Part shown: piece by piece, positions 22,164 through 64,000 of the stretch
Numbering within the stretch: the first letter of the stretch is position 1
How the letters are laid out: each line of letters starts with the position of its first letter
Assembly (NCBI GenBank): GCA_030789695.1
Contig: CM061134.1
Location: forward strand, 57,915,334 to 57,979,333
Length of the DNA: 64,000 nt
Reading direction: 5' to 3'
DNA from: Scilla litardierei
Lineage: Eukaryota > Streptophyta > Magnoliopsida > Asparagales > Asparagaceae
Notes under the pieces: model-generated
What the model was told of the DNA's origin: nothing
Databases searched by the model: none
The model's input: the letters and a program-made list of their open reading frames with translations, nothing else
Made by a program: the position numbers and the translations under genes

Positions 22164-23611
22164 ATGCGCAGGAGTTCAAGGAGTGTAGACGACATGATTC
22201 CTGTTGATCCAGAGATAAACGCCACCCTGAGGCGTCTTGCCACAGAAAAGAGAAGAAGAGAAGAGCTTGAAACCATGGGGGAGAATACCCCATCTCACAA
22301 GTCCCTGCTGGAATACTCGATGCCATCCATTGGGTCCACCTCCGCCATCCGACCTCATGTTATCACAGCGCAGAGCTTCGAGCTCAAGCCGTCCTTAGTG
22401 ACGTGGATCCGACAGGATCAATTCTCTGGGGCACCCATAGAGAGCCCTATCAAACATCTGGACTCCTTCCTCGAGAAATGTGACACCTTCCGGATAAATG
22501 GTGTCACAGCTGAAGCTATCCGTCTGAAGTTATTCCCCTTCTCTCTGCAGGATAAGGCCAAGCTGTGGCTTAGGAGAAGGACCCGAATAAGTTCAACACT
22601 TGGGAGAAGCTTTCAAACGCTTTTCTGAAGAAGTTCTTTCCTCTGGGGAAGACCATGAAGCTGAGGAGTGAGATCTCCTCCTTCTTCCAATCCAGCCACG
22701 AGTCCCTGCATGAAGCTTGGACAAGATTTAAAGAGATGCAGCGAAGATGACCTCATCACGACCTTCCCAAGTGGCAGATAATTAATCTATTCTACAACGG
22801 ATTGAGGGATGATTTAAAATCTTCGAAGGACGCCGCGGCTGGGGGTCCTTCATGTCCAGGAGTGAAGAAGATGCCGGGAACATACTAGAAAATATGGCGT
22901 CGAACAATGAGCGGTGGTGTAACGAGAGAGCCACACCTAGATCTGGGGGCATCCACAGGGTCGAGGACGTCGACAAACTATCCAGCAAGTTTGACTTGCT
23001 GTCGACCCAGATCTTAGCACTGATGGTAGGAGTCGATGGTGCTGGTACGCAACATATTGCGGCGGTGGAAGCAGAAGTCATGGGGGACTTCGAGGGCGGT
23101 GACATCTCACATCCGTTGGACCAAGCGAGCGTACTATTCTACAATCCTACTGGGAATGCGCCGTACCCACCGCGGACTAGCTCCAACCCGGCCTACTCTC
23201 CAAACAACCGGAATCATCCCAACCTTAGCTACCGGGCACCGTATCAGCTGCCGCCGCCTCAGCAGCAGCAACAACATATATATCAGCCGGCTAGGCCTCA
23301 GCAACATCAGTTTTAGCCACAGCAGCAATTTCAACAGCAGCAGCTTCCACAACAGTATCAGCATTACCCCCCAAGGAACCAGCAACCCATTCAGCAGCAG
23401 CAGCAATATGGCCAGCAGAGGACCATCTCTCCGGTTGAGTCCCTCTTGACTCAATACATTACCAACCAGGAGAAGATAAATTCGAAGCTGGAAATGGGGC
23501 AGAGGGCTCCCACGGACCAAGTAACCTAGCTGAGGTTACAAGTGGCGAACCTTCAAAGGTCGCAAAACATATTTCCGCCACAACCGGAAGTGAATCCGAG
23601 GGGAGCAAACT
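22164..23611 (+). pseudogene. Athila-1 gag
   Basis: Start ATG at 22164 (MRRSSRSVDDMIPVDPE), matching intact Athila-2 gag at 61049. The retroviral-type capsid region is clear: AQSFELKPSLVTWI, HLDSFLEKCDTF, AIRLKLFPFSLQDKAKLWL. A frameshift near 22570, a TGA near 22747 and further frame changes near 22840 break it. The Q/P-rich C-terminus is interrupted by TAG at about 23313, 23527 and 23611. Each of those three stops sits where CAG (Gln) fits the surrounding frame, so all look like C-to-T changes in a CHG context. Confidence 0.88.
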
Positions 23612-43557: not shown

Positions 43558-43879
43558 GACAAAGGAAAAATGGTGAACGCGGTCCAGACCGTTACGCGTG
43601 TCATCGAGTGAGGGGATAGAGTAAACAGCCGTCGCTTCGCCGGGGGAGGGCTAGCCTGCCAGAACCTCCCCTGCCGTTTGTCTTCTTTTCCTTTTTTCAT
43701 TACTCCAAATGTACTGTCTCATGGAAATGAAGGCATACAATGTCAGTTCATATTCAATCACCTGTTTTGAGCAGACGATTCGGGACACATATGAGGACTC
43801 AATCAAGGCAGCCACGGTTAACCATTAAGTGGAAGGAATGTCGCCCCCCAGAGAATTTGCCAGTCGAGCCCGAGGACCG

Positions 43880-45010
43880 AAGCAGACCGCCCGTTGGTAA
43901 GGCTGGGGGCAACTCCCCCAGTAGACTGGCACGAAGGCCGGTCATAAGCCGAGGGGTACTCACCCCCACAGACCGAACGAACCGCCCACTCATAAGGCTG
44001 GGGGCAACTCCCCCAGCCAACGAGTGTGACTGCCGGTTACAAGCCAAGGGGTACTCACCCCCGCAGACCGAGCAAACCGCCCACTCATAAGGCTGGGGGC
44101 AACTCCCCCAGCCGACGAGCGTGACTGTCGGTCACAAGCCGAGGGGTACTCACCCCCGCAGACCGAGCGAACCGCCCGCTCGTAAGGCTGTGGGCAACTC
44201 CCCCAGCCGATGAGCGCGACTGTCGGTCACAAGCCGAGGGGTACTCATCCCCGCAGACCGAGCGAACCGCCCACTCATAAGGCTGGGGCAACTCCCCCAG
44301 CCGACGAGCGCGACTATCGGTCATAAGCCGAGGGGTACTCATCCCCACAGACCGAGCAAACCACCCGCTTGTAAGACTGGGGGCAACTCCCCCAGCCGAC
44401 GAGCACGACTGCCGGTCACAAGCCGAGGGGTACTCACCCCCGCAGACCGAGCAAACCGCCCACTCATAAGGCTGGGGCAACTCCCCCAGCCGACGAGCGC
44501 GACTGCCGGTCATAAGCCGAGGGGTACTCACCCCCGCAGACCGAGTGAACCACCCACTCATAAGGCTGGGGCAACTCCCCCAGCCGACGAGCGCGACTGT
44601 CGGTCACAAGCCGATGGGTACTCACCCCCGCAGACCGAGAAAACCGTCCGCTCGTAAGGCTAGGGGCAACTCCCCCAGCCGACGAGCGCGACTGCCGGTC
44701 ACAAGCCGAGGGGTACTCACTCCCGCAGACCGAGCAAACCGCCCACTTGTAAGGCTGGGGAAACTCCACCAGCCGACGAGCACGACGCCCGGTCATAAGC
44801 CGAGGGGTACTCACCCCCGCAGACCGAGCGAATCGCCCACTCCTAAGGCTGGGGCAACTCCCCCAGCCGACGGGCACGACGGCCGGTCATAAGCCGAGGG
44901 GTACTCTCCCCCATGGACCGAGCAATGCGCCCGCTCATAAGGCTAGGGGAAACTCCCCCCAGCCGACGAGCATGACAGCCGGCCGCAAGCCAAGGGATGA
45001 CCTCCCTCGT
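43880..45010. repeat. About 95-bp satellite array inside the Tat-type element
   Basis: About twelve copies of a 94-95-bp unit between gag and the antisense gene. Each unit has CTGGGGG-CAA-CTCCCCCAG and GGGG-TACTCA-CCCC, plus a weaker pair around AACCGCC. Copies differ by a few substitutions and one-base indels in the G runs. Long antisense open frames here are by-products. Confidence 0.92.
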
Positions 45011-60875: not shown

Positions 60876-61048
60876 GCAACGTGCTTGTTATTTTAGGATC
60901 TCATGAACCATAGTGTCTAGCTCTTATCCCTACCTCGCGATAATTTTCGCATTCTTCTTTTTCCTTTTCATTTTCTTATTTTTATTTTTATTTCTTATCT
61001 TATCTGTTTCTTTCCCACTTGTCGCTTCACGGGTGTTTGTTGTTTTTC

Positions 61049-61993
61049 ATGCGCAGGAGTTCAAGAAGTCTCGACGACTTGATCCCCGTCGATCCTGAGA
61101 TAAACGCCACCCTCAGGCGTTTGGCCGCCGAGAAGCGAAGAAGAGAGAATCCTGAAGCCATGGGGGAGAACACCCCGCCTCACAAGTCCCTGTTGGAGTA
61201 CTCGATGCCTTCCATCGAGTCCACCTCTGCCATCCGTCCTCCAGCTATTACGGCCCAAAGCTTCGAGCTTAAGCCATCCTTGGTGACGTGGATCCAGCAG
61301 GATCAATTTTTGGGTGCACCCATGGAGAGCCCGATTGAGCATCTAGACTCCTTCTTGGAGAAATGTGACACCTTCTGGATAAACGGTGTCACAACTGAGG
61401 CGATCCGACTGAAGCTGTTCCCCTTCTCCTTGCGAGATAAAGCCAAGTTATGGCTTATGGGGAAGGACTCGAATACATTCAACACCTGGGAGAAGCTCTC
61501 AAATGCTTTCCTGACGAAGTTCTTTCCCCCGGGGAAGACCATGAAGCTGAGGAGTGAGATCTCCTCCTTCTCCCAGGCCAGCCACGAGTCCTTGCATGAG
61601 GCTTGGACAAGATACAAGGAGATGCAGAGAAGATGTCCCCACCATGAGCTCCCCAAGTGGCAGATCATAAATCTGTTTTATAATGGGTTGAGGGACGATT
61701 TAAAATCTACCATGGACGCCGTGGCTGGAGGGTCCTTCATGTCAAGAAGCGAAGAAGATGCCTGGAAAATTTTGGAAAATATGGCATCCAACAATGAACG
61801 GTGGTGTGACGAGAGAGCCATACCAAGGTCTGGGGGCATCCATAGAGTGGAAGAAGTCGACAAATTGTCAAGAAAGTTTGACTTGATGTCAACCCAGATC
61901 TCTGCATTGATGGTAGGCGCCGGTGGCGCCGGCTCACAACAGATTGCTGCAGTAGAATCCGAAGTTTTTGGAGAGTTCGACGGTGGTGACATC
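61049..61993 (+). CDS. Athila-2 gag, truncated by insertion
   Basis: 315 intact codons from MRRSSRSLDDLIPVDPE. Capsid motifs: AQSFELKPSLVTWI, HLDSFLEKCDTFWI, IRLKLFPFSLRDKAKLWLMG, FNTWEKLSNAFLTKFFPPGK, ASHESLHEAWTRYKEMQ, QIINLFYNGL. The frame is cut at EFDGGDI, where Athila-1 continues with GDISHPLDQA. The ATG follows TTTTTC with GCAG just inside it, the same context as in Athila-1. It is the best-preserved gag of this type here and a reference for judging the Athila-1 damage. The remainder would lie beyond Athila-3. Confidence 0.93.
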
Positions 61994-62284
61994 TGATCAC
62001 TCCTTATTTTACACCTTTTTTCCGCATGTTTGCATGCCATTTGGATCGCCCAAATCATGTTTTTCACGATATATCGACGATATTGCGATGCTTTTCACGA
62101 TTTGTTGTTTTTGTCGCATTTCAGGTGATTTGGCGCGATTTGGATTGATCATGAGATGCGCTCACGATAGACGGCCACCGACGACCTCCCCGAGGGGTAT
62201 TTTGCTGTTGGAAAGGAGCGGAAGAAGAATGGACGTCGCAGGAGCGACGAGGAGGCCAAAACAATCAGATTGGGCATTTTTTGT

Positions 62285-62760
62285 GTCCCACTCGGCCGAG
62301 TGGAGGAGCCACTCGGCCGACCAGCGAGACACTGCTCGGCCGACCCGTTCAGACACGATTTCCATGTGTGCTTGGCCGAGCAACGGAGACCACATCGGCC
62401 GAGTGACGATACCACGTCCGCCCGAGTGGCGCCCAGACGAAGCCCCTTCAAAATATCGAAGTTTATGTTTTTCGGCCACCTGAGCTTCAGAAGACCCACT
62501 CGGCCGAGTGGTAAATCCCGTCCGCCCGAGTGAAGTGAAGCCATCGGCCGAGTGACGACAACTCACTCGGCCGAGCCGCCCCCGAACTGAAGACCCCTGA
62601 AGCCCACGACTTACTGGAAATTGACAGGGTTTTCACTCGGTCGAGCGACTTTTGTCACTCGGCCGAGTGCGATGCGCTGCCTGTAGCGAAATTTGCGGAA
62701 AACAGGCTGTGCAGGGGCGTTTTGGTCAGGATTTTTAGACGATTTTTGGGGCTATTTAAG
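62285..62760 (+). promoter_or_regulatory. Athila-3 promoter: CGGCCG palindrome array plus TATA
   Basis: About a dozen CACTCGGCCGAGTG motifs, whole or half (perfect at 62289-62302), to about 62668. TATTTAAG (62753-62760) is the likely TATA box. Confidence 0.7.
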
Positions 62761-63150
62761 CTCTGTTTTTACCCTAGTTTGGAGAGCCATCTCTCAGATT
62801 TTTTGCAGCTTTTTGAGTCTACTTTTAAGTTTTATTAATTGTGATTGGAGAAGAGAAAAACTTGGATTTTTGTTGGATTAATTGAAGATCTACATTGGTT
62901 TGCATTTCTCTTCCCCAAAAACTCTATTTTTATTGTTTATATCATTGTTGTGATGAATTCCATTGCCTATTTCATTGATTATTTTTGTGCTATTGCTATG
63001 ATTTGTGAGTAGTCTCCACGTCTCGGGGCGTGGGGATGAACCCTACAAGCCCTATTTCCCATTTGTGTTGAATTGGTAGAAATTGAGCTAGGATTGTTAT
63101 TAGGGATTAGATTGGGATCGAATTACTACGGATAGCTAGGTATTCATATC

Positions 63151-63450
63151 AATTGGGATTTGCAAGAGATTGGATCCCAATTCGGTAGGAAGCCCTAGAA
63201 AGCCGAATTGGGTTGGAGTCGGATTTTCGAAGTATCGGTTTGCAAGAGATTGGACCGATACTAGGACCTCCGGTTGCAATTCCGTGCCGATACCCGTTTG
63301 CAAGAGATTGGACGGGTAGGAACTATCCTAATTTAGATTGTGGACCGAGTTTGCAAGAGATTGGGCTCGGTGCGCAATTGGACGATGATGTTGATCCTAA
63401 TGCTAGCTTCCCTAGGCTAGGGTTTGCAAGAGATTGGACCCAAACCTAGG
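63151..63450 (+). other. Five hairpins with one constant loop
   Basis: The 14-nt sequence TTGCAAGAGATTGG occurs five times (63160, 63240, 63298, 63351, 63424). Each is flanked by its own inverted repeat: AATTGGGAT/ATCCCAATT, AGTATCGGT/ACCGATACT, TACCCGT/ACGGGTA, ACCGAGT/GCTCGGT (one G-U pair), and GGGT/ACCC backed by CCTAGG/CCTAGG across a 3x3 internal loop. It lies 400-700 bp downstream of the TATA box, so it should be in the RNA leader. Confidence 0.88.
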
Positions 63451-63819
63451 ATAGCTATAGACCGGCAACAGCGCGAGAGCGTGAGTTTGGTTCTACATTT
63501 AGTTGCAACTAGTTCATCCAAATTCTCATTCTAGCAATTTTGATACCAACGAACCACATTTATGAAATACGGTGAGTAGCGGGGATTCCCCATTCCCTAG
63601 ACGTTCTTTATTTGATTTGATATTTCGCAAATTTGTCTGACGATTGTGACAGGATCGCCCAAGACAATTATCTCTGTTCCTAAATAGCCAGGTTGATCAG
63701 GAGCAAGCACGGTCATTCGTCCTCCCTGTGTTCGATACCCGCTCGCCACCATACCGTGCGCTTGCGGTAAAACTACAACCGTCGCCTCGGGACGTGTATC
63801 CGGGGTGCGATCAAGTTTT

Positions 63820-63838
63820 TGGCGCCGTTGCCGGGGAG
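63820..63838 (+). other. Athila-3 primer-binding site
   Basis: TGGCGCCGTTGCCGGGGAG, Asp-tRNA type, six bases after the LTR. Confidence 0.92.
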
Positions 63839-63971
63839 GCGATTGCGTTTGATTCTTTTTCACCCTAGCTATTCTTTTTCTTTTTATTATTATCATTATT
63901 CTTATTTCTTATTTCTTGCCTAACCCTTCCACGGTATTAATCATTTCTTTGAAACTCTGTTTCCCCTGTGC

Positions 63972-64000
63972 ATGAACACGAGATCTACGGCGGACCTAGA
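63972..64000 (+). CDS. Athila-3 gag start
   Basis: ATG at 63972 opens MNTRSTADL, cut by the window end. Its place after the PBS and T-rich leader fits gag. Too short for a domain call. Confidence 0.5.

What the first reader, a model, noticed from the sequence alone, without database searches (positions are those of the whole stretch)
63151..63450. Five stem-loops with an identical 14-nt loop and different, self-complementary stems
In Athila-3 R/U5 the loop TTGCAAGAGATTGG is unchanged in five places within 300 bp, while the flanks differ completely yet pair each time (9, 9, 7, 7 and 4+6 bp). Simple duplication would copy the flanks too. Constant loop with changing but complementary stems is what selection on RNA structure produces. 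Possible roles: genome packaging or dimerisation, control of translation of the leader, or a protein-binding array. I know of no described equivalent for Athila.
Basis: partly seen in the sequence, partly recalled or inferred. Interest (0 to 1): 0.9.

Follow-up and report, generated by a model that had tools for sequence, protein, structure and literature searches.

The report
Five-hairpin RNA array in plant retrotransposon
A very abundant retrotransposon (jumping gene) in a large plant genome carries, in the front part of its RNA, five hairpins that share one nearly unchanging tip on stems whose letters change but stay paired, which is the mark of an RNA structure kept by selection and probably of a multi-site docking platform for a protein.

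Summary
TTGCAAGAGATTGG occurs exactly at 63160, 63240, 63298, 63351 and 63424, and its differing flanks pair each time, inside the LTR (61994-63813), downstream of a TATA-like box and upstream of the primer site. The genome holds 167,774 exact copies of the 14-mer. The 'loop' is itself structured: its inner pair is A-T 269, C-G 68, other 3 of 340, so the tip is a 3-bp helix with a GAGA (GNRA) cap over a UG bulge. Shared G-U departures outnumber A-C ones, pointing modestly to the sense RNA. Function is inferred: most likely a multivalent Gag-binding (packaging) array; export, translation control or dimerisation are rivals. Nearest analogues are gammaretroviral GACG hairpins and iron-responsive-element arrays. 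No such array for Athila appeared in my searches.

The parts
61994..63813 (+). LTR of the element, TGATC...GATCA, inserted into the gag of another element (candidate 5-bp flank ACATC at 61989-61993; the other flank lies outside the window and was not checked)
   Evidence: boundary seen against the related gag at 22614-23107; 3' end GATCA before the primer site; a GATCA in the expected range in 29 of 31 copies
62753..62759 (+). TATA-like box TATTTAA, 407 nt before the first hairpin tip
   Evidence: TATA-like motif 361-411 nt before the first tip in 30 of 31 copies
63151..63182 (+). hairpin 1: 9-bp stem, tip 63160-63173; lower helices in the alignment fold reach about 63137-63197
63231..63262 (+). 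hairpin 2: 9-bp stem in the window, tip 63240-63253; only the 5 pairs next to the tip are kept throughout the 31 rows
63291..63318 (+). hairpin 3: 7-bp stem, tip 63298-63311; two neighbouring pairs switch between C-G and T-A
63344..63371 (+). hairpin 4: 7-bp stem beginning with T.G, tip 63351-63364; lower helix 63336-63342/63373-63379
63411..63450 (+). hairpin 5: 4-bp stem (63420-63423/63438-63441), tip 63424-63437, plus lower helix
63820..63837 (+). primer-binding site TGGCGCCGTTGCCGGGGA (assignment to tRNA-Asp and to Athila is recalled, not tested)
   Evidence: at +646 to +694 from the first tip in 16 of 31 copies
63972..64000 (+). ATG opening the first long frame after the leader; it runs on in L058:406-825; a gag domain (part) and an aspartic protease domain follow in L058:953-3181

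Best explanation
It is a cis-acting RNA array of five copies of one structural motif in the 5' leader of an LTR retrotransposon of Athila type. Each unit is a hairpin-specific stem, a closing U-A or U-G pair, a U.G pair, a two-nucleotide UG bulge on the 5' side, a 3-bp helix (CAA/UUG or CAC/GUG) and a GAGA tetraloop of the GNRA class. Shown by sequence evidence: five units at nearly constant offsets, compensated stems, a compensated inner helix, a nearly invariant bulge and cap, and a modest sense-strand bias. Inferred: the bulge plus cap is the surface read by a protein, the stem only presents it, and five units give high avidity. The most likely reader is the element's own Gag, so that the array marks full-length RNA for packaging into virus-like particles. 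The existence of the selected RNA structure I hold at about 0.93; the Gag-packaging role at about 0.4.
For: Stems: 3014 of 3059 core cells are standard pairs in 68 rows; 9 of 45 pairs have Watson-Crick changes on both sides, 12 switches by parsimony; none of 2000 swaps that keep the window row paired and none of 500 independent-arm simulations on the tree reach these values. Between the two main clades (14 and 13 of the 31 rows of the first sample; the 4 rows of two small clades left out) 11 core pairs differ in their commonest form: 7 Watson-Crick to Watson-Crick, 4 to G-U, 0 to mismatch. Tip: inner pair A-T 269, C-G 68, other 3 of 340; mean minor-letter frequency of the tip outside that pair 0.012 against 0.132 outside the hairpins. 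Strand: pair types seen in two or more rows G-U 17, A-C 5; types seen once 10 and 10. Number: five tips in 69 of 71 rows. Location: downstream of a TATA-like box in 30 of 31 and with a primer site following in 16 of 31 copies; gag and protease domains follow in this copy. Precedent: GACG tetraloops of alpha- and gammaretroviruses are involved in RNA packaging (PMC516450 and PMC5874298, passages seen).
Against: No experiment; no transcript ends, so R or U5 is unknown. The 45 core pairs were fixed after the first sample had been seen and leave out 10 outer pairs of the 55 used before; four of those left out are poorly kept (45-68% standard in 31 rows). Six of the nine double-change pairs switched only once on the tree, largely at one deep subfamily split, so independent events are few (12). 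The G-U excess is modest as events: one-sided binomial 0.008, Fisher against singletons 0.064, and 10 of 500 simulations reach the G-U minus A-C difference; the 208 G-U cells include hairpin 4's closing T.G pair, which was T.G in 31 of 31 rows of the first sample. The second tip form could have spread between hairpins 4 and 5 by conversion, which would make one event of two. No zinc knuckle was found in this copy's interrupted gag pieces, so Gag binding has no support at the protein level. Three other LTRs of the window with an Athila-like primer site lack the tip, so not all such elements use it. Only one genome could be examined.
Confidence: 0.5

Rival explanations
1. RNA-transport or transactivation array: the tips bind a host export factor or an element-encoded regulator, like the repeated binding loops of constitutive transport elements or repeated TAR hairpins (both recalled). 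It would serve unspliced RNA rather than packaging.
For: Same general anatomy (5' bulge, small upper helix, cap, repeated; the comparison is recalled); lies downstream of the TATA-like box.
Against: No splicing evidence; the donor-like word GTGAGTAG upstream of the array is present in only 19 of 31 copies.
Confidence: 0.2
2. Translation control: the hairpins, with the upstream ATGs, limit scanning or serve internal initiation or shunting on a leader of about 1.2 kb (start assumed about 30 nt after the TATA-like box).
For: Strong structure and 7 upstream ATGs with frames of 4-19 codons in the assumed leader.
Against: A barrier would need stable stems but not a nearly invariant tip: minor-letter frequency 0.012 against 0.132 outside.
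Confidence: 0.15
3. Dimerisation by loop-loop kissing through the six-base palindrome UUGCAA in an open 14-nt loop.
For: UUGCAA is self-complementary; some retroviral dimer sites use palindromes (PMC516450, passages); the fold of the window's leader gives the inner helix a probability of only 0.55-0.68.
Against: The second form TTGCACGAGAGTGG breaks the palindrome but keeps the inner helix; 68 of 340 inner pairs are C-G.
Confidence: 0.1
4. DNA-level palindromes (protein site or cruciform) with no RNA role.
For: The U3 of the same LTR has palindromic units; the antisense strand also folds well (z -5.14).
Against: G-U 208 against A-C 23 cells and shared types 17 against 5, with the limits named above; the array is downstream of the TATA-like box.
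Confidence: 0.03
5. Chance or plain duplication followed by drift, without selection on pairing.
For: Hairpins 2 and 3 share 24 of 28 letters, so some duplication is likely.
Against: Controls; in viral contigs the 7 places with two loosely matching tips at similar spacing have no stems (0-1 pairs).
Confidence: 0.02

Closest known systems
GACG-hairpin pair (SL-C, SL-D) of murine leukaemia virus and related retroviruses
   Same: Hairpins in the 5' leader of a reverse-transcribing element with the same conserved tetraloop; linked to packaging and dimerisation (passages of PMC5874298 and PMC516450). That the stems differ is recalled.
   Different: Two units, GACG cap, animal retrovirus. Here five units, GAGA cap, a UG bulge under a 3-bp helix, plant element.
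Iron-responsive elements of transferrin receptor 1 mRNA
   Same: Five elements in one untranslated region bound by iron regulatory proteins (passages of PMC3416848); conserved loop with 5' bulge on variable stems (recalled).
   Different: Different loop and bulge, 3' UTR of a cellular gene; no sequence relation tested or expected.
Ty1 and BARE packaging and dimer signals
   Same: cis-acting RNA of LTR retrotransposons; BARE2 is said to have conserved dimerisation and packaging signals (passage of PMC3735527); kissing loops in the 5' part of Ty1 RNA (title and abstract opening of PMC5454406).
   Different: Copia-type elements (recalled); no repeated constant-tip array appeared in the parts of these papers that I saw.
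Athila lineage LTR retrotransposons
   Different: Three other LTR leaders of the window with an Athila-like primer site lack the tip and fold less strongly (z 0.74 to -2.84 in four stretches).

Membership tests
Structured RNA kept by selection | stems keep pairing through changes on both sides beyond controls | tested here: met
Structured RNA kept by selection | sense-strand wobble pairs tolerated more than A-C | tested here: met
   cells 208 v 23, shared types 17 v 5; modest as events
Athila-type Ty3/gypsy LTR retrotransposon | Athila-like primer site, gag and protease downstream | tested here: inconclusive
   all present, but that they define Athila is recalled
Athila-type Ty3/gypsy LTR retrotransposon | placement by reverse transcriptase phylogeny | not tested
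   the pol of this element lies outside the window and was not read
Retroviral-type packaging signal | in the 5' leader of full-length RNA | tested here: inconclusive
   downstream of a TATA-like box, upstream of the primer site; no transcript ends
Retroviral-type packaging signal | binds Gag and is needed for encapsidation | not testable with these tools
   needs binding and particle assays
GACG-hairpin pair | GACG tetraloop | tested here: not met
   cap is GAGA
Palindromic kissing-loop dimer site | conserved self-complementary open loop | tested here: not met
   68 of 340 inner pairs are C-G, which breaks UUGCAA
Any Rfam family | match at gathering score | tested here: not met
   62600-64000 searched up to E 5: two matches below threshold, CrcZ and CRISPR-DR36

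The most novel reading that the evidence does not exclude
A previously undescribed class of retrotransposon leader element: a fixed five-valent array of a bulge-plus-GNRA tip on freely covarying stems, used by an element with more than 30,000 LTR copies in a 3.7-Gb plant genome as its genome-recognition code, read by an assembly protein in which no zinc knuckle was detected, so that this plant lineage evolved an avidity-based packaging signal of its own.
Probability: 0.35. Interest if true: 0.88.

Novelty: new variant of a known kind. Interest (0 to 1): 0.77.

Why it matters
How plant LTR retrotransposons select their own RNA for copying is, to my knowledge, little known. This gives a compact, testable RNA motif with five built-in repeats in a family with tens of thousands of LTR copies, where natural variation already separates stem, tip and bulge. 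If it binds Gag, it supplies a defined packaging signal for a plant element of this lineage; if it binds a host protein, it reveals a host factor the element depends on.

Tried and rejected
Literature: the exact 14-mer, 0 papers; searches on Athila, plant or LTR retrotransposons with packaging, stem-loop, hairpin, leader, dimerisation or covariation listed no such array; of most papers only listings and abstract openings were seen. Rfam: nothing at threshold; the weak CRISPR-DR36 match to the tip of hairpin 5 is taken as chance. Viral contigs and prokaryote genomes: exact two-tip pattern 0 hits; the looser pattern gave 7 viral loci without stems. A microRNA reading was set aside because the stems vary and the tip is constant, the reverse of what I recall of microRNAs. 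A splice-donor reading of GTGAGTAG was set aside because it is found in 19 of 31 copies and in 2 of 13 of clade B. A search for tips with a pyrimidine-purine second pair found 2 places, not a new subfamily. Host species was not identified. Neighbouring copies taken as LTR mates are assumed from spacing; L044/L045 both carry the primer site, so that pair is not a mate pair, and I draw nothing from the mates here. Of 71 rows, three were dropped: L098 (0.53 identity, one tip) and two rows identical to others. The Fisher test on column pairs treats pairs as independent, which they are not. The first sample (31 rows) was chosen by an exact tip, so tip conservation is judged on the second sample, chosen by a downstream word. 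That sample comes from the first 7.4 Mb of contig C1; of 100 listed places, 30 came as loci and 40 of the other 70 were fetched. The two loci (L089, L090) were not aligned.

Full report
What is there. The window is G000:C5:57915334-57979333 of an unnamed 3.68-Gb genome; the named relatives of a gag in the window are plant proteins. A TATTTAA box lies at 62753, the primer site at 63820, and the ATG of the first long frame at 63972; a partial gag domain and an aspartic protease domain follow in the adjoining DNA, with the frame interrupted in this copy.

The five units. TTGCAAGAGATTGG occurs at 63160, 63240, 63298, 63351 and 63424 with no mismatch. Flanking runs of pairs are 9, 9, 7, 7 and 4; cross-combinations of arms give 1-4, so hairpin 5 rests on its lower helix and on the other copies. 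In the predicted fold of the assumed leader the stem pairs have probabilities of 0.93-1.0 except the two outer pairs of hairpin 3 (0.37, 0.72), and the inner helix 0.55-0.68. The isolated hairpins all five fold as stem, U.G, two-nucleotide bulge, 3-bp helix, GAGA.

Copies. The exact 14-mer occurs 84,400 times forward and 83,374 times reverse in the genome, against 1 and 4 for the pattern read backwards. A word downstream of the array, which does not include the tip, occurs 30,715 times. In 31 copies including the window, a TATA-like motif lies 361-411 nt before the first tip in 30, and the primer site follows at +646 to +694 in 16, at +1098 in one and is not found in 14; the latter are presumably 3' or solo LTRs. 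Five tips (up to 2 errors) were found in 69 of 71 rows of the second sample; one row has a single tip and one scored six.

Covariation. First sample (31 rows, chosen by an exact tip): 1598 of 1689 cells in 55 pairs are standard; 8 of 21 stem pairs with both columns variable show a Watson-Crick double change with at least 90% pairing, against 934 of 24,815 other column pairs (Fisher 5e-7, pairs not independent). Four of the 55 pairs are poorly kept: hairpin 2 pairs 6 and 7 (68%, 52%) and hairpin 5 pairs 5 and 7 (55%, 45%). Sliding the 3' partner by 1-3 columns gives 13-48% pairing, and 0 of 2000 swaps of 3' columns that leave the window row paired reach the observed value. For the second sample I used 45 core pairs, dropping 10 outer pairs after seeing the first. 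Second sample (68 rows kept of 71, chosen by the downstream word): 3014 of 3059 cells, 9 pairs with double change, 12 switches; swap control mean 0.896, maximum 0.973, 0 of 2000; slides by 1-2 columns 29-49%. With arms evolving independently on the tree and the same number of changes per column, mean pairing is 0.865, maximum 0.929, and 0 of 500 reach the observed 0.985 or the 9 double changes.

The tip is a helix, not a plain loop. The pair formed by tip positions 6 and 11 is A-T 269, C-G 68, A-C 1, G-T 1 and T-G 1 of 340; A-G and C-T are not seen. It is C-G in 54 of 68 rows at hairpin 4 and in 14 of 68 at hairpin 5; among the 23 rows shown the hairpin 5 change is in clade B only, so it arose, or was copied, at least twice. 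The closing U was constant in 31 of 31 rows for all five hairpins; the letters UUG before the inner helix and the GAGA cap are 98-100% constant. The second form destroys the UUGCAA palindrome, which speaks against a simple kissing-loop dimer.

Strand. If only DNA mattered, G-T and A-C departures should be equal. Types shared by two or more rows are G-U 17 and A-C 5; types seen once, presumably mostly mutations after insertion, are 10 and 10. This fits selection on the sense RNA while the element was active and neutral decay afterwards. As a test it is modest (binomial 0.008, Fisher 0.064; 10 of 500 simulations).

How it probably works. A nearly invariant bulge-and-cap on stems whose letters are free as long as they pair is what a protein-binding hairpin looks like; five in a row give avidity. 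The position between promoter and primer site in the copies examined fits genome selection by Gag. Nothing here shows the partner. Rivals are export, translation control and dimerisation. Retroviral GACG hairpins are the nearest precedent (passages seen in PMC516450 and PMC5874298).

Limits. One genome, local sampling (first 7.4 Mb of contig C1), few independent switches, possible conversion between tips, core pairs fixed after the first look, no transcript ends, no protein data. Genome-wide counts of the second tip form were requested but did not complete (and repeats).

Noticed in passing
62290-62670: The U3 of the same LTR carries palindromic units around TCGGYCGA (9 matches); the U3s of the 60-kb and 6-kb LTRs carry different palindromic units such as AACCGATCGG. 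Family-specific palindrome arrays in U3 may be promoter or enhancer sites.
   Followed up: partly
63111-63123 and 63169-63181: An upstream stretch is 92% complementary to the 3' side of hairpin 1, so a competing fold could open hairpin 1.
   Followed up: no
63005-63012: A donor-like word GTGAGTAG lies upstream of the array and similar GAGTAG words lie in two other LTRs of the window; upstream of the array it is present in 19 of 31 copies.
   Followed up: partly
63802-63813: The LTR 3' end GGGGTGCGATCA resembles the start of plant 5S rRNA as I recall it; possibly chance.
   Followed up: no
L058:406-3181: The gag frame of this element is interrupted, and no CCHC zinc knuckle was found in its pieces or in the neighbouring gag 61019-61993.
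   Followed up: partly
L098: A copy with the downstream word but only one recognisable tip (0.53 identity to the window): a possible array-deletion copy.
   Followed up: no
43875-44996: A 95-bp tandem repeat, 11.8 copies.
   Followed up: no
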